Assembly: GCA_016342495.1 (NCBI GenBank) | Contig: JAEIOG010000002.1 | Coordinates: 1-64,000, forward strand | Direction: 5' to 3' | Origin: Phycisphaerae bacterium | Lineage (GTDB): Bacteria; Planctomycetota; Phycisphaerae; Sedimentisphaerales; SM23-30 | DNA: 64,000 nt | Part shown: positions 21,169 through 29,698 of the stretch, one piece after another | Layout: each line of letters starts with the position of its first letter | Position numbering within the stretch: the first letter of the stretch is position 1 | Translations under genes and position numbers: made by a program | The notes under the pieces: generated by a model | Told to the model about the DNA's origin: nothing | Database searches by the model: none | The model's input: the letters and a program-made list of their open reading frames with translations, nothing else

Positions 21169-21668
21169 GATTTTTCTCCTGTAGAGTTTTATCGTTTAAC
21201 TTACATCTATTAATTTAGACGTCGCTCAAGACTTTTTCTTGCATAAAAAATCGTCATTTCCACCATTATCTAACAATTCACACGAATTATCCACCTTTAT
21301 TTCCCTACCTACGATAACCAATCTATCAACTTCCAACAAACAGCACCGTGCTAACCCCTTAACTATAACCACAAGCGCCAGCGCGTGGACTATGCCCACG
21401 CTGTTTAAAATAGCTTCTCTTCCTTATCTTTAATCGTATTCCTGCGCTGGGTGCCAGTGGCCTGCCATACCTGTTCGCCGTGGCATCCGTTGGCACCCTC
21501 ACGCTAACTCATGTAGAGACAAGGCATGCCTTGTCTCCCTCTCCCCACACATCGCACCAACCCCATCCCCCCAGGGCTAACGCATGAAATTTAATTATGT
21601 CATTCCCGCGACGGGTGGCAGCCAGGTAGGATGGGTAAAACTTGTTTTGCCCATGCGGTTTAAAATTT
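21169..21668. repeat. Repeat-filled gap next to the terminase gene
   Basis: 500 bp without a gene. It contains a family E fragment (ATAACCACAAGCGCCAGCGC, near 21,366), a GGTGCCA/TTGGCACC imperfect palindrome (about 21,450-21,498), palindrome B copy 2 (21,516-21,537) and family A copy 3 (21,625-21,665, with a longer stem AAAACTTGTTTTGCCCAT). Confidence 0.7.
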
Positions 21669-22856
21669 TCATGAGCAAAAGCGAATACGGATTTTCTGTT
21701 GGTTTTTGCTGACGGCCGTTTGAAATTCTGCTGGCGATGGAATGTGTTCGAGTCGCTGGTTGATTGCGCCGGGTGCCCGCACCCGGTATGGCCAACGCTC
21801 ACGCATCACCCGGACATGTTCGCTTATCGTCGCTCGCCGCCGAACATATTTATCCACCACAAAAACCATCCCGTCACTATCAACCTGAATCAGCAAACAA
21901 GCAAACGGATTACTAAAACCAAAATCAATCGCCCGATACGTCTCAAGCCCTTCCCGATATGCCACATCACCAACATTTATATCCGCGTCAAACTCCGCGA
22001 AAACCAAATCTTGAACAGAAGGCCTCTTACATAACATCTCGCTTTGCCACCCCGCTTTGCTGGCCCGACGCTTTTGTGCTATCGCATCGTCAATTTTATA
22101 ATGACCACCCGCCTGCTTTGCCCGCCCCCTGCAATCTGCCAACAATGCACACCGACTGCAACTCCGACCCACACATTTTTCAATCACATCAAACAAACAC
22201 CATTTAAAAATCTCCGCATCACCCTGCTGAGCATTTTTGATAATCTTACTCATCAAACCCGTTGGCCTGTGCATCGTCGACAACACTTCCAGCCTTGCCG
22301 ATATATTATTTTTCGATTGTGTCACAAACTGCGCCGCCTGCCACACATCCTCGTCAAACATCTCCACCTCATCACAACGCAAACGCTGAACATGATGGCC
22401 CCGCACGCTCGATTGCGATTGCGTCAAAGCCTGAACCGATGACCCATTGACAAAGCGACAAATGTTTTGCGTTATCTTGCCATCAACCATTTCTTCATAG
22501 CCACCCATTAGCCCCTGCTGCACATATTCATACATTCGCTGCGACTGCTGTTGGCTGCCGCCCAATATCCGCACCTGACACCTCGGTAAAAAAACACATT
22601 CCAAAAGCGAAGCCGCCGCCGCCAACTGCGTCTTACCGCCACCCCGACAGGACCACACTACAATATCTTTATTGTCATTATTCAAAAGCGAATAACTCAA
22701 ATAATCCAAAGGGGTATTATGTTCCTTGCAAACCGAATTCACCGATAGCTTCAAACCCAAAAATGCCTCCGCATAAGCCGCCACCTGCTCACGACTACTA
22801 GGCCGACATCTCCGCAACCGCTCATACAACTTAACCTGACTACCTTCATCAAACAT
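21669..22856 (-). CDS. Phage-type terminase large subunit, C-terminally decayed
   Basis: About 395 residues from ATG 22,856 (GGGAG 7 bases upstream). The open frame continues to 22,907, but its first codons come from a family A repeat. The packaging ATPase is complete: Walker A VVWSCRGGGKTQLAAAA, Walker B VQRLRCDEVEMFDED, coupling segment LEVLSTMHRPTG, a Cys-rich insert (CVGRSCSRCALLADC), and the start of the RNase H-like nuclease (YRAIDFGFSNPFACLLIQVD). Beyond about residue 350 the frame runs into palindromic repeat DNA (CCGGGTG/CACCCGG near 21,779-21,796) and stops, so the remaining nuclease acids are missing. Probably non-functional as a nuclease, or a domesticated motor. No portal or capsid genes are nearby. 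Confidence 0.8.
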   Translation of the reverse strand: MFDEGSQVKLYERLRRCRPSSREQVAAYAEAFLGLKLSVNSVCKEHNTPLDYLSYSLLNNDNKDIVVWSCRGGGKTQLAAAASLLECVFLPRCQVRILGGSQQQSQRMYEYVQQGLMGGYEEMVDGKITQNICRFVNGSSVQALTQSQSSVRGHHVQRLRCDEVEMFDEDVWQAAQFVTQSKNNISARLEVLSTMHRPTGLMSKIIKNAQQGDAEIFKWCLFDVIEKCVGRSCSRCALLADCRGRAKQAGGHYKIDDAIAQKRRASKAGWQSEMLCKRPSVQDLVFAEFDADINVGDVAYREGLETYRAIDFGFSNPFACLLIQVDSDGMVFVVDKYVRRRATISEHVRVMRERWPYRVRAPGAINQRLEHIPSPAEFQTAVSKNQQKIRIRFCS

Positions 22857-23089
22857 ATCAATTCTCCCAATAATAAAATCATTCCAGGTAGGATGGGCTC
22901 TGCCCATGCCGTTTCAAACACCATGACCACAACCAACACCACAACCCAGCCCGCCTACTAACACCCACCAATCACCCACAGCATATCAAACCATCGCAAA
23001 CACCACCTATAACCACAAGCGCCAGCGTGTGGACGTCAAACCCATGAACAAAGCGAATACCACAACCAACCCGTCACCTAACACCAACC
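22857..23089. repeat. Repeats A and E upstream of the terminase gene
   Basis: Family A copy 4 at 22,887-22,918 (GGTAGGATGGGCTCTGCCCA). Then two family E stretches in leftward sense: 22,930-23,003 and 23,008-23,089. The second includes CCACAAGCGCCAGCG, GGACGTCAAACCCATGAACA and AAGCGAATACCACAACCAAC. The MITE at 23,090 is inserted in the second. Confidence 0.75.
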
Positions 23090-23279
23090 GTAACATTTTA
23101 GCGATCTGGAGCAAAACAGCACGAAGCGGTATCGCCGTGCTAAGGCACTATGCTACATTACATGATGATTAAAGTGATTTTAGCATTAAAACACAATTTG
23201 CGTTTTTTAGCTGGGCGCTGCCGCTACCAGCTGTTTGTTGGTCAATTGTCGCCTTTGCTACATGTCGCTAAAATATTAC
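23090..23279 (-). mobile_element. MITE copy 2 (190 bp), nested in a family E repeat
   Basis: Starts GTAACATTTTAGCGA, ends TCGCTAAAATATTAC, with a perfect 8-bp target duplication CACCAACC (23,082-23,089 and 23,280-23,287). As reverse complement it differs from copy 3 (30,938) by only about three bases over 190, so both moved recently. Without the element the flanks rejoin as CTAACACCAACCAAT, matching uninterrupted family E copies. Confidence 0.95.
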
Positions 23280-23287
23280 CACCAACC

Positions 23288-23400
23288 AATACAATTTCCA
23301 GCCCGAAGGGCTAACACACCACAGCCCAGGGCAACGCCCTGGGTATACACCCCCAAAAAAATCCACGCCCTGAAAGGGCAACATAAAACATATTCATTCC
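23288..23400. repeat. GCCCGAAGGGC/CAGCCCAGGGC repeat (family F), copy 1
   Basis: GCCCGAAGGGCTAACAC, then CACAGCCCAGGGCAACGCCCTGGGTA in two pieces: two adjacent small hairpins. A third, GCCCTGAAAGGGC, follows. Related to copies at 23,970 and 24,930. Confidence 0.7.
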
Positions 23401-23455
23401 TCACTTTGAAAACAAACCCTACCACCCACAATCACATACCATTACCAAACAATCA

Positions 23456-23740
23456 TTACTGGGGGACATAAGAATTCTTAAAAGCCTCAAATTCACTACC
23501 AGCGCCATTATTACATGCAATTTTTCCAGCCATTATCATATCGGAATCATTCATTATATCACTGCAATTACCCCAATTATGAACAATTGCCCTGCAAGCC
23601 AAAATTCCCCATCTTTTACCTAATGTTTTAATGCTATCTTCAACAACAGGTATCGCATCACTTTGATAACCGTTAAGACAAATTGCTAATATACATTTAT
23701 ATCTTGCTTCTATCCAGTTAGTTTTTTTGGTATAAGCCAT
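23456..23740 (-). CDS. Small protein of unknown function, HEAT-like
   Basis: 94 residues (ATG 23,740, no clear ribosome site). Helical, with a pattern (YQSDAIPVVEDSIKTLGKRW, GILACRAIVHNWGN) reminiscent of one HEAT repeat pair. It may be a fragment of a larger HEAT protein or a small stand-alone one. A GTTAAC palindrome lies immediately upstream, as for the gene at 13,311. Not recognised. Confidence 0.4.
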   Translation of the reverse strand: MAYTKKTNWIEARYKCILAICLNGYQSDAIPVVEDSIKTLGKRWGILACRAIVHNWGNCSDIMNDSDMIMAGKIACNNGAGSEFEAFKNSYVPQ

Positions 23741-23750
23741 TTTGTAATAT

Positions 23751-24110
23751 TCGGCGAGTGACAGCGGTTAACTCGTTAACCGATGGAAAACTCATCCAAA
23801 CCACAATAACCTAATCTATGCAATATGTAGGACATGCATCCTGCTTGTCCATATTTCAACCATGAACAAAGCGAACACTCTCCCCACTCATTGCAAGCAA
23901 GCCTTATTATTCCATACTAAATATTACACAAACAAATCAAAAAAAAATTCCCCACAACCACTAATCCACCCTACGGCCCGAAGGGCCAACACAACTCAGC
24001 CCAGGGCAAAATGAACAAAGTGAATGTCGCCCTGGGTAAACCTCCCCTCTCTTAAATTTAAAAAACCATGAGCGAAGCGAATCCCGAGGACCCAGTCTCA
24101 ACCGCAAATA
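23751..24110. repeat. Repeat cluster: GTTAAC palindrome copy 2 and family F copy 2
   Basis: 23,751-23,786: GTTAAC palindrome (GCGGTTAACTCGTTAACCG). 23,820-23,885: TGTAGGACATGCATCCTGCTTG and following sequence that recurs near 24,855. 23,970-24,075: GGCCCGAAGGGCC hairpin, CAGCCCAGGGC...GCCCTGGGTA hairpin with AATGAACAAAGTGAATGTC in the loop, then CTCCCCTCTCTTAAATTT and ATGAGCGAAGCGAAT. This last block is nearly identical to 24,928-25,040. No gene in the 375-bp gap. Confidence 0.75.
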
Positions 24111-24115
24111 ACACA

Positions 24116-24631
24116 TTAATCTACAAAAGCGGCTTCGCCTTCGATGAAACTATTTTCAATGTCTGGATAATCACCAAATGGATCAATGGTAAAATAATGC
24201 ATTAATTTATCTACTGCAACTTTATATCCAGAATATTTTTCATGATTCATTATTTTGCCCATAATAAATATTTTAGGCGTAACATTCATGTGTCCAGCAT
24301 CGACAGCATCAATAATCACTATTTCAGTGCCGGCATCGATAATATCAATTATTTTATACTCATCGCCACCATCTGGCCCATGCCACTGCCCCTTTCTGAA
24401 TAGTTCCATATATTCTTCTTTATCACCCACCAATCCAGCTACGAAATAATAATCACTGAACATATCTTTATATCTACCAAAAAACATAGGCGAAGTAAGC
24501 ACAAGTTTATGGCCTACATATTTCTTGAATACCAATTGCTGAGCTTCCGGGCAAGGCCGCGAAATGCTGCACGAACAAAGAACCAAAGGCAAAATAAGCA
24601 ATATAGCTAAAATCATAATATTTTTACGCAT
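24116..24631 (-). CDS. Lipoprotein of unknown function
   Basis: 171 residues. Lipoprotein signal MILAILLILPLVLCSC (lipid Cys about residue 19-21). The mature part is acidic, with beta-rich segments (YKIIDIIDAGTEIVIIDAVDAG, PKIFIMGKI). Not recognised. It sits between repeat clusters and is probably a host or cargo gene rather than phage. No strong ribosome site, but AGAGGAAG lies about 9 bases before the start. Confidence 0.6.
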   Translation of the reverse strand: MRKNIMILAILLILPLVLCSCSISRPCPEAQQLVFKKYVGHKLVLTSPMFFGRYKDMFSDYYFVAGLVGDKEEYMELFRKGQWHGPDGGDEYKIIDIIDAGTEIVIIDAVDAGHMNVTPKIFIMGKIMNHEKYSGYKVAVDKLMHYFTIDPFGDYPDIENSFIEGEAAFVD

Positions 24632-25109
24632 AATAACTTCCTCTGTAATATTTATTTTAATACGCAGTCATCTATCCGAATTATCTACTAATAAATTCAC
24701 ATCCTAATATAACAAATCCAACATAAAAAACAATCCCAAATAAAAGCGAAGCAAAATAATTTCAACAAGAGCGAAGCGATTTCCACCAAACTCAAATTGT
24801 CATCCTCGCGCAGACGAGGATCCAGCCAAACCTATCCAAAATAACAAACTCACAATAAGTATCCCAAACATCCTGCTTGTCAACATTTCAACCGTGAACA
24901 AAGCGAACACGTTACCCACTAATCCCACCCCACGGCCCGAAGGGCCAACACAACTCAGCCCAGGGCAAAATGAACAAAGTGAATGTCGCCCTGGGTAAAC
25001 CTCCCCTCTCTTAAATTTTAAAACCATGAGCGAAGCGAATACCACAACCCACCCCGCCAACTAACACCCACCAATCACTCGTAGCATATCAAACCATCGC
25101 AAACACAAA
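24632..25109. repeat. Repeat cluster: family F copy 3 and family E
   Basis: 24,855-24,910 duplicates the CATCCTGCTTGTC...CGAACAC block of 23,830-23,880. 24,928-25,020 is family F, almost identical over about 115 bp to 23,970-24,075. 25,022-25,105 is family E (ATGAGCGAAGCGAATACCAC, then CTAACACCCACCAATCAC and GCATATCAAACCATCGC). No gene; the first 150 bp are AT-rich leader of the lipoprotein gene. Confidence 0.75.
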
Positions 25110-25180
25110 TAATTTAAAACAAAGTCGCCCAGCGACACCGCCTCTTACTCGCTTACTCTCTTGCTCTCCTACTCTCTTAC
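25110..25180 (-). repeat. Duplicated 3' tail, copy after the small terminase-like gene
   Basis: In gene direction: GAGTAAGAGAG-type 8-mer repeats, then GTGTCGCTGGGCGAC (stem GTCGC/GCGAC) and TTTGTTTT. The same block follows the GNAT gene at 25,607-25,643. The hairpin plus T-rich end resembles a weak terminator. Confidence 0.7.
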
Positions 25181-25579
25181 TCACCCAAACGCCTTAGCCA
25201 ACTTCACCAATATTGGCTTCAAATCCTTGTCGGCTATACCATAATCATTATCTTCTTTCTCTTTTTCCTGATTATCATCATTGCATCTTTCAATCATATC
25301 CAAAGCCGCCCGCCGTGCAACATCGGGTTTATCCGAATTCAGCAGCCCAACCAGCGTCTCCGCCGCTATCGGGCCATACCGGGCAATCTTCACTCTTGTC
25401 TCCAATTGTGCCTTTCTACATAAGCAGGCGATTTCCCGATTGAAAGATTTGCTATTCATAACCCGCTCCAGTTGACCCGGTTTTAATTTATACTTTTCAA
25501 TAATCTGCTCCTGCGTCAATTTCCCTTCAAACAAATCAAACGCAACACTACAATGTTTACCAATCGATCTTCTTGCCAT
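25181..25579 (-). CDS. Small-terminase-like DNA-binding protein
   Basis: 132 residues from ATG 25,579 (GGGAG 8 bases upstream; a TTG at 25,594 is less likely). The N-terminal HTH-like part (LFEGKLTQEQIIEKYKLKPGQLERVMNS) looks like the DNA-recognition domain of small terminases. Then come a helical middle (ARYGPIAAETLVGLLNSDKPDVARRAALDMIERC) and an acidic, charged linker before a C-terminal helix. This shape and its place near a large terminase suggest the DNA-selection subunit of a packaging motor. The large subunit gene is 2.3 kb downstream, separated by repeats and two small genes. Confidence 0.6.
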   Translation of the reverse strand: MARRSIGKHCSVAFDLFEGKLTQEQIIEKYKLKPGQLERVMNSKSFNREIACLCRKAQLETRVKIARYGPIAAETLVGLLNSDKPDVARRAALDMIERCNDDNQEKEKEDNDYGIADKDLKPILVKLAKAFG

Positions 25580-25599
25580 AACAATATCTCCCAATCTCA

Positions 25600-25643
25600 G
25601 TAGTTGAAAACAAAGTCGCCCAGCGACACCACCTCTCGCTCTC
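25600..25643 (-). repeat. Duplicated 3' tail, copy after the GNAT gene
   Basis: Same hairpin (GTCGC/GCGAC) and GAGTAAGA 8-mers as at 25,110-25,180, starting directly at the GNAT stop codon. If it terminates transcription it would separate GNAT from the small terminase-like gene. Confidence 0.7.
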
Positions 25644-26384
25644 TTACTCTCTTACTCTCTTCTTCTTAATAAAATACACCGGCACACTACCCATCTGCTC
25701 GACAACAAATTCACATTTATCCACAAAACTATCTTGCCGCTTATTTACATACTTACTCATAAAACGTTTTATCCGATAACACACCAATTCTTTTTCACTT
25801 TCACCCAGACCATCTATAGCTTCCATCAATTTTTTCCCACTAATCAAATCTCTATCCTTAATCTCCATCTCATCAAAAGTCGCCAACAATTTTTCATGCT
25901 CAGCCGACACGCCACCATCATAGCGAATCATCCCGGCTTTTTCAAAAAATGGATTAATCCTTCCCATCACCGCCAGTGCTTCTACATATTTCGTCCCAGC
26001 CATATCCAGGGTCTCTTTTACCAGCCAACTGCCCAGCGACATCCCGCGATATTGGGGCGCTATAATCACCCGACTTATACAACGCATTTCACTATTCAAT
26101 AATTTCAATCCCGCCGACCTGTCCGAACCGCAATACCTGTTATCTGTTGCGACATTTCTCAACCGGCAATTTATCACCGGCATCGAATAAACTATCACAC
26201 CCACAACTTCCCTTTTACCGCCTAACTTATAAACTAAGGTTTTGCGCTCAGAATAAATCGCGAAAACCTTGTCAACAAACCCTGGCCTGCCATTGCGATA
26301 ATGAAAATCTTTCAAAGCACCATAAGCTCCCATCCCCGCCGGCTCAATCACCAAACCATCATACAATGTACATCTTTTCACCAT
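25644..26384 (-). CDS. GNAT-family N-acetyltransferase, partner of the ABC ATPase
   Basis: 246 residues. GNAT core with the acetyl-CoA pyrophosphate loop PQYRGMSLGSWLV (about residues 112-124) after the beta-4 strand ISRVIIA, and MGRINPFFEKAGM as the C-terminal motif. The last 80 residues are a charged helical extension. The ATG lies 6 bp after the stop of the ABC ATPase gene, so the two are translationally coupled. In archaea the same pairing occurs as a single fused protein (COG2401, ABC-type ATPase fused to a predicted acetyltransferase). The substrate is unknown; in a phage context it might modify a nucleic acid or a host protein. Confidence 0.83.
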   Translation of the reverse strand: MVKRCTLYDGLVIEPAGMGAYGALKDFHYRNGRPGFVDKVFAIYSERKTLVYKLGGKREVVGVIVYSMPVINCRLRNVATDNRYCGSDRSAGLKLLNSEMRCISRVIIAPQYRGMSLGSWLVKETLDMAGTKYVEALAVMGRINPFFEKAGMIRYDGGVSAEHEKLLATFDEMEIKDRDLISGKKLMEAIDGLGESEKELVCYRIKRFMSKYVNKRQDSFVDKCEFVVEQMGSVPVYFIKKKRVRE

Positions 26385-26390
26385 GACTTC

Positions 26391-27062
26391 TCACTTCCCC
26401 GGATAATACACATCGCAATGACTGCCCAAATGTTTTATCATCACCACATCCGGCGCCAGGTCTTCCAGCATATCATCATGGCTGGTAGCTACCACAAATG
26501 TCGTTCCAAACCGGTTGGCAAACTTTCGCACATTATGAGCCACCACCGCCGCAGTCACCCGATCCAGCGTTGAGCAAAACTCATCGATAAAAATCACATC
26601 CGGATTAATCGACAATGCCAGTGCCAACTTAAACCGATAGCGTTGACCATCACTTAAATGCTCAGAATTTCTCAGCACCGCAAAGGCATCACTTAATCCA
26701 GCCATACTGAGCCAACTCATAACATCACTCAAATGGTCATCAATAAAACAATCAACCAATGGCCTGCCGGTTGGCACTTCTAATTCTCCAAGATTAAGAA
26801 TCTCTTTAAAACCGACACCCTTCTTTTTGGCATTAGCCTGCATCTGCTCATACAACATCTTAAATATCTGCGATTTACCGGCCCCGCTGCCACCGGTAAT
26901 ATAAACCACCTGACCAGATTCGATTTTGACTTTGCAATTATCAACAACAATCATCTCCCGACCAGGTCGGTTGCCCAGACCAAACATCGACGAAACCGCC
27001 GCGACATTTGGCGATAATTTTACTTTGGTATCAAACTTCTTCGTTAAAACATAACTTGTCAT
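26391..27062 (-). CDS. Soluble ABC-type ATPase (COG2401-like)
   Basis: 223 residues from ATG 27,062 (GGAG 9 bases upstream; the open frame to 27,149 overlaps the preceding gene by about 50 bp). All ABC motifs are present: Walker A GGSGAGKS (about residues 60-67), signature LSDGQRYRFKLALAL (variant of LSGGQ), Walker B DVIFIDEF with catalytic Glu, D-loop STLD and switch His in VVATSHDD. No membrane domain is encoded nearby, so it is not a transporter. With the coupled acetyltransferase it matches the two halves of COG2401. It was expressed from the leftward promoter of the phage-like region. Confidence 0.87.
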   Translation of the reverse strand: MTSYVLTKKFDTKVKLSPNVAAVSSMFGLGNRPGREMIVVDNCKVKIESGQVVYITGGSGAGKSQIFKMLYEQMQANAKKKGVGFKEILNLGELEVPTGRPLVDCFIDDHLSDVMSWLSMAGLSDAFAVLRNSEHLSDGQRYRFKLALALSINPDVIFIDEFCSTLDRVTAAVVAHNVRKFANRFGTTFVVATSHDDMLEDLAPDVVMIKHLGSHCDVYYPGK

Positions 27063-27096
27063 AATAATCTTCTCCAAATTGATAACTTTTACTATA

Positions 27097-27567
27097 TTAG
27101 CAGCATCCCGCGAATCTTGCTGATTTTTCATTGAGGTTTTTATGTTCATTTCTGGCTTTGTGTTTTATTAGCCATTCATCCAAATAACAAAGTTGGCGAT
27201 AAACTGTACTGACAGAAATTTTTCTTTTCAATGCGATAGTTCGCCGCCCCTGACCTAACAAAAAATGGTCGTAGGCAATCAATAATTGATTGTCAGTGAA
27301 CTGATTACGATTTCGCAAAAAACACATATAGTCGTCGCTCAATAATCTTTTTACCATTTTACGAATTTTCCTGGATATATTCGCCGGGGTGATACCAATT
27401 AAAATACCCAGTTGACTAAAACTGGCATTATGGGACAAGTGTAGCTCCAGAATTATCCGGTCTGGTGGGGCCAGAAGTTTCATTCTATTCATGATAATGT
27501 CATACTCTGCCAATTGCATTTTTCGAAAATCAACTGATTTACTAATTTGATCTAATTTGCCAACCAT
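27097..27567 (-). CDS. Two-HTH regulator, sigma-70 region 4-like
   Basis: 156 residues from ATG 27,567 (AAAGGAG 5 bases upstream; an in-frame TTG lies at 27,582). Residues about 30-75 resemble sigma region 4 or a related HTH (RIILELHLSHNASFSQLGIL, GITPANISRKIRKMVKRL). A second HTH is near 100-140 (QGRRTIALKRKISVSTVYRQ, LCYLDEWLIKHK). It is the first gene leftward from the control region and 34 bp before the ABC ATPase gene. Likely the activator or late-gene regulator of the cassette, or a small-terminase-like protein; both readings fit. Confidence 0.65.
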   Translation of the reverse strand: MVGKLDQISKSVDFRKMQLAEYDIIMNRMKLLAPPDRIILELHLSHNASFSQLGILIGITPANISRKIRKMVKRLLSDDYMCFLRNRNQFTDNQLLIAYDHFLLGQGRRTIALKRKISVSTVYRQLCYLDEWLIKHKARNEHKNLNEKSARFAGCC

Positions 27568-27724
27568 AAAAACTCCTTTCAATACATTCTATATAATCAA
27601 TACAAATAGTTTGTTATTTATATAACTAACAGACTTATGAAGTTTACAACAGATTTAGGGAAATGCAAAAAAAATTTAGAATTTTTATAAAAAAATATTA
27701 AAATTACTTGTTTATCTAACTTTT

Positions 27725-27980
27725 TAGGGCATAATTAAGGGTATAGAGGGTAAATAATTAAACAGTTATTATTTAATAGAAGGCCCGGCCTGTGAATTAA
27801 ATAACAGTTGTCGCAGTTTATTTAGGGTATTTTTATGGTAAGTTTGTGTCTACTACTAATTTTTACATGTAATTGCATAATTTATACCCAAAGGGTATGA
27901 ACTTTTTGGCAGGTCCAGTTTTAATGCCTTGCAATGCAAGAACTTATGTATTTAAGAATGGAAAATTTTAAGGGTAATCA
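27725..27980. promoter_or_regulatory. Control region with repeated GGGTAT half-sites
   Basis: In the 442-bp divergent gap (27,568-28,009) the word GGGTAT or GGGTAA occurs at 27,739-27,744, 27,748-27,753, 27,825-27,830, 27,893-27,898 and 27,972-27,977. The fourth is half of a perfect 15-bp palindrome ATACCC-AAA-GGGTAT (27,884-27,898). This is the layout of a lambda-like operator array, with the S24 repressor gene starting at 28,010. Promoter boxes are not clear enough to call. Confidence 0.55.
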
Positions 27981-28009
27981 GTATACAATGCTTTTCAACA
28001 GGAGCTAAT

Positions 28010-28795
28010 ATGTCTTTAGGTCAGATCATCAGACAAAAACGTGAATCATTAAAAATGACATTAGATGAAGTATCACGTCACGTGGGTTATTCAAAACCTT
28101 ATCTTTCGACCATTGAAACTGGGCGGGTCAAGAATCCGCCAGCTGATGATTTACTAATTAAGCTTGAGCAAACTTTGCAGTTTACTTCTGGTGATTTACT
28201 AAGGATGGCCCATTTGGAAAAGATGCCAGCTGATGTTCGCCAGGCCTTTGAAAACAATCAGGCTGAGGTGGAATACTGGCGCGGGTTGGTTCGGAAGCTG
28301 GCGGCGAATGATGATAATTTAGCGATTGAAATTGATGAAAAACACGGTCATTTTTTGGGAAAAAACGCAAATAACTGCCAACAAATGTCGATTCCGGGAC
28401 TTTTGGTGCCCGTAATTAATAAGGTTTCGGCGGGATATCCGGTGGATTATGACGATATGGGCTATCCACCTGGTGCGGCGGATGACTATGTACGCTGTCC
28501 GGATTTGCATGATGCTAATGCTTTTGCGGTACGGGTAGTGGGTGATTCGATGGAGCCAAAGTATAAGCAAGGGGACATCATTGTGTTTTCACCAAATATA
28601 AATGTCAATAGCGGCGATGACTGTTTTGTGCGGTTGACCGACCCGCATGAGACGACATTTAAGCAGGTGTTTTTTAATGGGGATGGGAAAGTACGTCTTC
28701 AGCCTCGTAATCATAAATATGCGCCGATGGTATTGCCCGAAGAAAAGATTAATGGGATATATAAGGCGGTTATTCGGTATGAAACGATTACGTGA
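28010..28795 (+). CDS. CI/LexA-type repressor: XRE HTH plus S24 peptidase domain
   Basis: 261 residues. XRE helix-turn-helix in residues 5-60 (IIRQKRESLKMTLDEVSRHV, YSKPYLSTIETGRVKNPP). The C-terminal S24 self-cleavage domain has a cleavage-site-like VSAGYP (Ala-Gly), the serine in VVGDSMEP and the general-base lysine in TTFKQV. Such proteins repress phage lytic genes and self-cleave with RecA after DNA damage. AGGAGC precedes the ATG. It is divergent from the HTH/ABC/GNAT/terminase genes with a half-site array between. It probably controls them. Confidence 0.92.
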   Translation: MSLGQIIRQKRESLKMTLDEVSRHVGYSKPYLSTIETGRVKNPPADDLLIKLEQTLQFTSGDLLRMAHLEKMPADVRQAFENNQAEVEYWRGLVRKLAANDDNLAIEIDEKHGHFLGKNANNCQQMSIPGLLVPVINKVSAGYPVDYDDMGYPPGAADDYVRCPDLHDANAFAVRVVGDSMEPKYKQGDIIVFSPNINVNSGDDCFVRLTDPHETTFKQVFFNGDGKVRLQPRNHKYAPMVLPEEKINGIYKAVIRYETIT

Positions 28796-29698
28796 TTTTG
28801 TTTTATTTTTGTTATTTTTTTGTGGCGCTGGTTTGATATGCTGCGGGCGATTGGTTGGTGTTAGTTAGCGAGCTGGGTTGTGGGATTCGCTTTGCTCATG
28901 GGTTTGAAGTCCACGTGCTGGCGCTTGTGGTTATAGTTTGTGTTTGGGTTTTATTTTACAGGGTGGGCAAAGTAGTTGCCCATCTTATGCGACAGTATCT
29001 GTTCAATGGTAATGCCGACAATATCCTTTAGAGCTGTGGGCAGCATATGGGAATTTCCATCGGTTAACAAGTTAACCGCTGGGTGCCCGTCGCCGTTGAA
29101 AGATTATCAGGGGACGATGAATTGGATGAGGATTGAATTTTGTAGAAGGTATGAGGTATTCGCTTCGCTCATGAAATTTATATCAGCGTGGGCATGGCCC
29201 ACCCTTTCGTTGGTAGAATTGTTTGCCGCTGGCTTTGTTCGCTGGTGCCGTTTGCTTCATGTTTGCGGTTGGGACAGAGTCTGCAAAATGAATTTGTCCA
29301 TCCTACCTGGCTGGCTACATTGGCTGGTCGGTGGGTTGGTGTTAGTTGGCGGGCTTGGTTGTGGGATTCGCTGTGCTCATGGGTTTGACGTCCACGCGCT
29401 GGCGCTTGTGGTTATAGTTTGTGTTTGGGCTAGTTTGATATGCTGCGGGCGATGGGTTAGTGTTGGTTGGCGGGGCTGGTGTTTGTGTTTGAGGCAAAAT
29501 ATGATAGCGGGATAGGTAGATGATTTAGCCGGCCTATATGGCTGTGGGCAGCATATGGAAATCCCCGTCGGTTAAGAAGTTAACCGCTGGGTGTCCATCG
29601 TTTTTTTGGGTTCATTGAGATATTTGATTGGGTTAAGATTAAGACGTTGCATGCAACGTCTCTACAATTTGGTGGTGTAGCCGAAAAGGAGTAAGGTA
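28796..29698. repeat. 903-bp repeat block right of the repressor
   Basis: No gene. Contains, in rightward sense, family E at 28,832-28,949 and 29,321-29,490 (one and a half copies). It holds GTTAAC palindrome units at 29,035-29,093 and 29,543-29,600, both led by TGTGGGCAGCATATGG. At 29,642-29,661 is a 20-bp palindrome AGACGTTGCA plus its complement, followed by CTAC, a variant of palindrome B. A GGGTGGGCAAAGTAGTTGCCCAT element (28,961-28,984, in two halves) and GGGCATGGCCCACCC (29,190-29,205) resemble family A. The E copies are inverted relative to those at 22.9-25.1 kb. Confidence 0.75.

What the first reader, a model, noticed from the sequence alone, without database searches (positions are those of the whole stretch)
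21669..28795. Phage-derived cassette: S24 repressor, sigma-like HTH, ABC ATPase, GNAT and terminase without structural genes
Seen: a CI/LexA-type repressor diverges from five leftward genes (two-HTH regulator, ABC ATPase, GNAT, small-terminase-like, large terminase). No capsid, portal, tail, lysis, integrase or replication gene is in the surrounding 10 kb. Known: S24 repressors control SOS-inducible lytic genes, and terminases package DNA. Inference: either a prophage reduced to its control and packaging ends, or a domesticated SOS-inducible module in which the ABC/GNAT pair acts on DNA or a protein during packaging or defence.
Basis: partly seen in the sequence, partly recalled or inferred. 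Interest (0 to 1): 0.75.

Follow-up and report, generated by a model that had tools for sequence, protein, structure and literature searches.

The report
Domesticated phage DNA-packaging module without capsid
A whole class of bacteria has kept, by ordinary inheritance, one copy of a virus's DNA-packaging genes under a DNA-damage-type switch but without the virus's shell genes, and the copy in this genome is a partly broken member of that family.

Summary
The cassette S24 repressor | HTH–ABC–GNAT–(ParB-like)–TerS–TerL recurs across the window's class. GNAT is in 256 and TerL in 201 of 397 genomes, nearly always one copy. Every multiply sampled family is monophyletic in the GNAT and TerL trees, so it was inherited vertically. 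The cognate phage portal occurs in 1 of 47 genomes and HK97 capsid in 8. TerL keeps its ATPase and nuclease residues elsewhere. The window copy is decayed: its TerL loses most of the nuclease domain and its ParB-like gene is gone. The S24 protein is a single-copy host regulator, often unlinked from the cassette. An 18-bp operator pattern lies at the HTH promoter and at unlinked S24 promoters. The same operator precedes parB–comEA in two relatives. Gene-strand-independent GC skew flips, origin-like, at the HTH start in the window and several relatives. Best reading: an ancient domesticated, probably DNA-damage-inducible, DNA-marking and DNA-translocating module, gene-transfer-agent-like in logic but without a recognised shell. 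Function is inferred.

The parts
28010..28795 (+). S24/LexA-like repressor: HTH_3 plus Peptidase_S24, with SAGYP cleavage site, GDSMEP Ser and TTFKQ Lys
   Evidence: 49-67% identical full-length single-copy orthologues across the order, weaker ones in other families
27612..27631 (-). Putative S24 operator TGTTAGTTATATAAATAACA (inverted repeat TGTTAG-N8-CTAACA)
   Evidence: same pattern at HTH promoters and unlinked S24 promoters of relatives
27641..27668 (-). Sigma70-like promoter of the HTH operon (-35 TTGCAT, 16 bp, -10 TAAACT), directly upstream of the operator
   Evidence: read from sequence, conserved arrangement in relatives
27603..27603 (.). Minimum of cumulative GC skew: origin-type skew switch at the HTH start
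27097..27582 (-). Two-HTH, sigma70-region-4-like regulator, first gene of the module
26391..27149 (-). ABC ATPase (start more likely 27062); Walker A, LSDGQ signature and Walker B intact
25644..26384 (-). GNAT-fold acyltransferase, conserved partner of the ABC ATPase (fused to it in several families of the class)
25181..25594 (-). TerS-like small terminase subunit (start more likely 25579)
25595..25643 (.). Site where relatives carry the ParB_N-like gene; here absent, with a repeat on both sides of TerS (25110-25145 and 25601-25659)
21669..22907 (-). TerL pseudogene: ATPase domain intact, nuclease domain cut after its first Asp; likely start 22856, homology ends about 21780

Best explanation
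An ancient phage DNA-packaging cassette (HTH, ABC ATPase, GNAT, ParB-like, TerS, TerL) was captured in the ancestor of this bacterial class and has been inherited vertically as a host system under an S24/LexA-like regulator. Shown: one copy per genome, conserved gene set, intact catalytic residues in relatives, family-by-family vertical descent, no conserved shell genes among those sought, a shared operator between module and regulator, and an origin-like strand-asymmetry apex at the module start. Inferred: DNA damage makes activated RecA trigger S24 self-cleavage and the operon is derepressed. ABC+GNAT then acylate bases of the DNA, in the manner of Mom. ParB-like and TerS proteins mark or recognise start sites. 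TerL translocates and cuts host DNA. Local replication starting at the module supplies template, as in Bartonella run-off replication. The product would be marked, processed host DNA for release/transfer or repair, gene-transfer-agent-like in logic. In this genome the packaging half is probably dead (TerL nuclease and ParB lost), while the regulator, ABC and GNAT are intact.
For: Presence: GNAT 256/397, TerL 201/397, mostly full-length, S24 207/397 at 1e-30. TerL and S24 co-occur: 170 genomes with both, 159 with neither, Fisher p 4e-42, phylogeny not corrected. Linkage: TerL on the same strand within 12 kb downstream of GNAT in 62 of 95 genomes, and still intact where unlinked. Vertical: family monophyly in two gene trees. 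Full-length close TerL is class-restricted; in the phylum sample the other hits are weaker and mostly partial. Cognate portal in 1/47, PF05065 in 8/47, PF04860 over cut-off in 5/59. TerL Walker A, CDE and three nuclease Asp motifs conserved; nuclease similar to solved TerLs 5oe8 and 2wbn. Operator: 20 hits in 36 genomes, 11 of them at HTH, S24 or parB-comEA. GNAT model (pLDDT 89) matches GNATs including TmcA/NAT10 and phage Mom; ABC+GNAT pairs are predicted DNA-base acyl-modifiers (PMC7824862). Phages carry ParB-ABC-GNAT-DNA-binding-TerL-portal-capsid. Skew jump at HTH start 0.59 in the window versus at most 0.26 in 18 random regions of the same genome; plus-strand genes at 18-20 kb also carry -0.53 to -0.65 third-position skew; unlinked S24 loci show no such jump.
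Against: No function was measured. Only three structural families were sought genome-wide, so an unrecognised shell may exist. The module is absent or broken in many genomes of the class, so it is dispensable. ABC-GNAT persists without TerL in some families, so its job may not be packaging. Many relatives are MAGs. The genomes with the strongest skew show several similar apexes elsewhere, so the apex need not be specific to the module.
Confidence: 0.55

Rival explanations
1. A true gene transfer agent whose capsid, portal and tail genes lie elsewhere in the genome or are too divergent for the models used; this locus is its control and packaging arm.
For: TerS/TerL kept intact for a class-wide time span implies DNA is moved somewhere; origin-like skew apex recalls Bartonella run-off replication next to its GTA; in G005 portal, scaffold and major capsid genes follow TerL directly.
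Against: Cognate portal found in only 1/47 module-bearing genomes, HK97 capsid in 8/47 and Phage_portal over cut-off in 5/59, none co-conserved.
Confidence: 0.25
2. A DNA-modification and defence or self-marking locus: ABC+GNAT acylate chromosomal DNA, and the terminase is an effector that translocates and cuts unmarked DNA.
For: ABC-GNAT pair predicted to modify DNA bases, GNAT model near phage Mom, ABC-GNAT kept without TerL in families f9, f18 and f19.
Against: Vertical inheritance and low mobility are unlike defence islands; the best PADLOC match is the ABC ATPase to mad3 (8e-17) and the rest of that system was not seen; LexA-type repression at rest would leave DNA unmarked.
Confidence: 0.15
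3. A DNA-uptake or recombination aid: the S24 regulon couples DNA damage to competence, and the packaging motor processes imported DNA.
For: The same operator precedes a parB-comEA operon in G008 and G235; comEA identity confirmed; in several genomes S24 sits next to genes read as comF and a pseudopilin (identified by eye).
Against: Only two genomes show the comEA site; parB may be the relevant target; TerL motors are not known in uptake.
Confidence: 0.15
4. A decayed prophage remnant with no function.
For: The window copy has lost ParB and the TerL nuclease domain, probably through repeats.
Against: Intact single-copy orthologues with conserved active sites and family-wise monophyly across the class; core-gene neighbourhood.
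Confidence: 0.05
5. A satellite that hijacks the capsids of helper phages, like PICI or P4.
For: S24 repressor, TerS and no capsid are typical of such satellites (general knowledge).
Against: No integrase seen, vertical inheritance, housekeeping flanks, and a full TerL is carried.
Confidence: 0.07

Closest known systems
Packaging cassette of Pseudomonas phage nickie (Nickievirus) and Rhizobium phages RHEph10 / RHph_N1_10
   Same: ParB-like, ABC ATPase, GNAT and DNA-binding (TerS-position) proteins upstream of TerL; ABC is phrog_293 and GNAT is phrog_886-like
   Different: In phages portal and capsid follow at once and some carry a DNA methyltransferase; in the bacterial class there is no shell gene, a LexA-like host regulator and vertical descent
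Gene transfer agents (RcGTA, BaGTA with run-off replication)
   Same: Phage-derived, vertically inherited, host-controlled, TerL retained; an origin-like signal near the locus recalls Bartonella ROR
   Different: No recognised capsid or portal genes co-conserved; DNA particles not shown
Mom / ABC-GNAT predicted DNA base acyl-modification systems (Iyer et al., cited in PMC7824862)
   Same: GNAT coupled to an ABC ATPase; GNAT model close to phage Mom
   Different: Here joined to TerS/TerL and a LexA-like switch; no base modification shown
LexA / CI-type S24 repressors
   Same: HTH plus S24 domain with Ala-Gly site and Ser/Lys dyad; apparent autoregulation through an inverted-repeat operator
   Different: HTH_3 reading head, not the LexA winged helix; small regulon centred on a terminase operon; scores below the LexA equivalog cut-off

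Membership tests
Functional prophage | Structural genes (portal, capsid) in or near the locus | tested here: not met
   None seen in the window; cognate portal phrog_145 in 1/47 genomes, PF05065 in 8/47
Functional prophage | Patchy, horizontal distribution | tested here: not met
   Family-wise monophyly in GNAT and TerL trees, single copy
Functional prophage | Integrase and attachment sites | tested here: inconclusive
   No integrase among the ORFs scanned around the module and housekeeping flanks; att sites not searched for
Gene transfer agent | Vertically inherited phage-derived gene cluster | tested here: met
Gene transfer agent | Capsid and tail genes co-conserved with TerL | tested here: not met
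   for three portal/capsid families; other families and tail genes not tested
Gene transfer agent | Particles packaging host DNA | not testable with these tools
   needs experiment
Large terminase (TerL) | Walker A, Walker B and three nuclease Asp motifs | tested here: met
   Met in relatives; NOT met in the window copy, which keeps only the first nuclease Asp
Small terminase (TerS) | Sequence match and position before TerL | tested here: met
   phrog_2538 8e-8 in L034, 0.004 in the window
ABC-GNAT (Mom-like) DNA modification system | ABC ATPase adjacent or fused to GNAT | tested here: met
   fused in L059-L062, L067, L068, L071
ABC-GNAT (Mom-like) DNA modification system | Covalent acyl modification of DNA bases | not testable with these tools
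   prediction only
LexA-type self-cleaving repressor | Ala-Gly site, catalytic Ser and Lys | tested here: met
   Present in the sequences of ten relatives and the window
LexA-type self-cleaving repressor | Operator at own and target promoters | tested here: met
   TGTTAG-N8-CTAACA-like sites at S24, HTH and parB promoters; binding itself not shown
LexA-type self-cleaving repressor | RecA-dependent cleavage and SOS induction | not testable with these tools
   needs experiment
Phage satellite (PICI/P4 type) | Mobile element with integrase and helper-dependent packaging | tested here: inconclusive
   No integrase seen and vertical inheritance; mobilisation not tested

The most novel reading that the evidence does not exclude
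A new kind of domesticated phage machine: a capsid-free packaging motor with its own DNA-marking enzymes and a local replication start, under a LexA-like host switch, that moves or processes chromosomal DNA after damage. It would be kept for a class-wide time span without ever making a particle.
Probability: 0.35. Interest if true: 0.93.

Novelty: new variant of a known kind. Interest (0 to 1): 0.8.

Why it matters
Terminases are known as motors that fill viral heads. An intact, vertically inherited terminase operon across a bacterial class, controlled by a LexA-like regulator and lacking recognised shell genes, implies either an unknown class of gene transfer agent or a cellular use of a packaging motor. 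It also offers a direct genetic test of what ABC-GNAT 'DNA acylation' pairs do. The origin-like skew apex at the module gives a simple, testable sign (a copy-number peak) of activity in vivo. The literature searches made here found no description of it.

Tried and rejected
Viral contigs scanned with the GNAT: no relative. Genome-contig scan with the ABC protein: one distant Prevotellaceae hit, not used. Literature on COG2401 and on domesticated terminases in planctomycetes: nothing held; the Iyer 2013 paper is not held. parS-like sites at the module: none; only near a chromosomal parB 30 kb away in G243/G362. Recurrent operator-like sites in G292/G351 lie inside ribosomal-protein coding sequence and are coincidental; several other exact operator matches (e.g. 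G000:C116, C143, C172) lie inside genes. 'Module is simply next to oriC': closed genomes often place it 50-150 kb from a dnaA gene, but several do not, and the skew decays within about 20-25 kb. 'Skew follows gene direction': rejected for the strong cases, because plus-strand genes on the left share the negative third-position skew and unlinked S24 loci show no jump; for weak-amplitude genomes gene direction remains a confounder.
Full report
OBSERVATION. The S24 repressor (28010-28795, +) diverges from a leftward set: HTH (27097-27582), ABC ATPase (26391-27149), GNAT (25644-26384), TerS-like (25181-25594) and TerL-like (21669-22907). The sampled neighbours (enolase, Rho, MscS, PTS enzyme I, RNase E/G) are core genes; no phage structural gene or integrase was seen. 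Two corrections matter. The TerL is a pseudogene: aligned with 28 relatives it keeps the ATPase domain and the first nuclease Asp but lacks the DPAG and DHxxDALRY motifs, and its end is dispersed-repeat DNA also found in other contigs of this genome. And a ParB-like gene that sits between GNAT and TerS in relatives is missing here, where similar repeats flank TerS.

DISTRIBUTION. GNAT is found in 256 of 397 genomes of the window's class, nearly always once; a TerL profile (A1) finds 201 of 397, mostly full-length and single. In 40 fetched loci the usual order is S24(divergent) | HTH-ABC-GNAT-ParB-like-TerS-TerL, with S24 absent from the locus in some families, ABC and GNAT fused in some, and host-type genes inserted between TerS and TerL in one family. 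Of 95 genomes with both positions printed, 62 have TerL downstream on the same strand within 12 kb; in the rest TerL is elsewhere on the contig or on another contig, mostly still intact. In a phylum sample, the strong full-length matches lie in the class; outside it matches are weaker and mostly partial.

INHERITANCE. In maximum-likelihood trees of TerL and GNAT, each family sampled more than once is monophyletic, and the two trees broadly agree. With single copy number, this is vertical descent, not repeated prophage entry. TerL relatives keep Walker A (RGGGKT), CDE and three acidic nuclease motifs, and the profile matches solved TerL nucleases. Shell genes do not follow: Phage_portal over cut-off in 5 of 59 genomes, the cognate portal phrog_145 in 1 of 47, HK97 capsid in 8 of 47. 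The exception, G005, has portal, scaffold and major capsid right after TerL, in a contig that also carries chromosomal genes. The portal there is related to that of phage nickie, whose genome has ParB-ABC-GNAT-DNA-binding-TerL-portal-capsid. So the cassette is of phage origin and the shell genes are missing elsewhere.

REGULATION. S24 orthologues occur in 207 of 397 genomes at 1e-30. They are single copy and 49-67% identical full-length across the order, including genomes where S24 lies far from the module. Ala-Gly, Ser and Lys of LexA-type self-cleavage are conserved. TerL and S24 co-occur (170 both, 31 TerL only, 37 S24 only, 159 neither; not corrected for phylogeny). Upstream of HTH, many genomes share a sigma70-like promoter followed at once by TGTTAG-N8-CTAACA; the window site is 27612-27631. 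A stricter 18-base pattern gives only 20 hits in 36 genomes. Six are at HTH, four at unlinked S24 promoters and one at a parB-comEA operon; the reversed-pattern control gives about 14 hits in the same genomes, so the other nine are probably chance. Thus S24 very probably represses itself and the module, in trans where unlinked. The parB-comEA link is seen in two genomes. S24 next to genes that I read as comF and a pseudopilin hints at competence; both are leads.

CHEMISTRY. The GNAT model (pLDDT 89) matches GNATs in the PDB, including tRNA/rRNA cytidine acetyltransferases, and, among viral models, a phage Mom. ABC-coupled GNATs were predicted to acylate DNA bases (PMC7824862). This is a prediction, not shown.

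STRAND ASYMMETRY. In the window cumulative GC skew has its minimum at 27603, the HTH start; skew is -0.38 on the left and +0.24 on the right. The jump (0.59) exceeds every value in 18 sampled regions of the same genome (at most 0.26). Plus-strand genes at 18.1-19.8 kb carry third-position skew -0.65 and -0.53 like their minus-strand neighbours, so gene direction is not the cause. In G362, G243 and G072 the jump is at or within about 0.5 kb of the HTH gene. Over 36 loci the largest jump falls within about 600 bp of the HTH/ABC start in 15 (binomial 1e-7 under a uniform null; gene direction confounds the weak ones). Unlinked S24 loci show no jump. G362 and G243 also have other apexes every 30-40 kb, so the process is not unique to the module. 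An origin-like process starting at the module is the simplest reading; Bartonella run-off replication beside a GTA is the known parallel.

MECHANISM. Shown: gene set, inheritance, conserved active sites, shared operator, skew apex. Inferred: damage, S24 cleavage, operon expression, DNA marking by ABC-GNAT, site recognition by ParB/TerS, translocation and cutting by TerL, fed by local replication. The purpose (transfer, repair or uptake) is open. I put 0.85 on 'ancient domesticated host module' and about 0.4 on 'DNA-mobilising use'. In this genome the packaging half is probably lost.

COMPARISON. It works most like a gene transfer agent's packaging arm but fails the tested shell-gene criterion, so it is not filed as one. 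It shares gene order with phage cassettes but is not a prophage. No known defence system explains it; the best PADLOC match is the ABC ATPase alone to mad3.

Noticed in passing
G362 loci L075,L076,L056,L077,L078; G243 loci L079,L080,L064,L081,L082; G072 loci L083-L086 and L055: Saw-tooth GC skew up to +/-0.5, gene-strand-independent, with sharp origin-type switches every ~30-40 kb; one apex lies within about 1 kb of a parS-like site near chromosomal parB, another in a phosphofructokinase gene. I know of no bacterial precedent.
   Followed up: partly
L070 / L194 (G005:C3): Only genome where portal, scaffold and major capsid genes follow the module's TerL directly, in a contig that also carries chromosomal genes (NAD synthetase, cation efflux); perhaps a less reduced state.
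   Followed up: partly
L136, L137, L147, L148 (G235, G008): Module operator in front of a parB-comEA operon, suggesting that the S24 regulon touches DNA uptake or segregation.
   Followed up: partly
L154-L157, L160-L163: Unlinked S24 gene lies next to genes that read as comF and a pseudopilin in several genomes of one family.
   Followed up: no
L059, L061, L062, L067, L068: Fused ABC-GNAT without any TerS/TerL nearby in families f9, f18 and f19: the pair has a role independent of packaging.
   Followed up: no
L052 (G253): HTH runs directly into GNAT with no ABC gene between, another sign of erosion in the window's own family.
   Followed up: no
phylum search, family f48 (G417, G441, G478, G525, G627 and others): About a dozen genomes of another family in the phylum carry a TerL whose nuclease domain matches consistently (about 1e-28 to 1e-35): possibly a second domesticated or prophage lineage.
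   Followed up: no
window 21400-21800, 22840-23120, 25100-25200, 28796-29690: Dispersed intergenic repeats (also in other contigs of this genome) at the TerL ends, around TerS and downstream of S24; they probably mediated the TerL truncation and the loss of ParB.
   Followed up: partly
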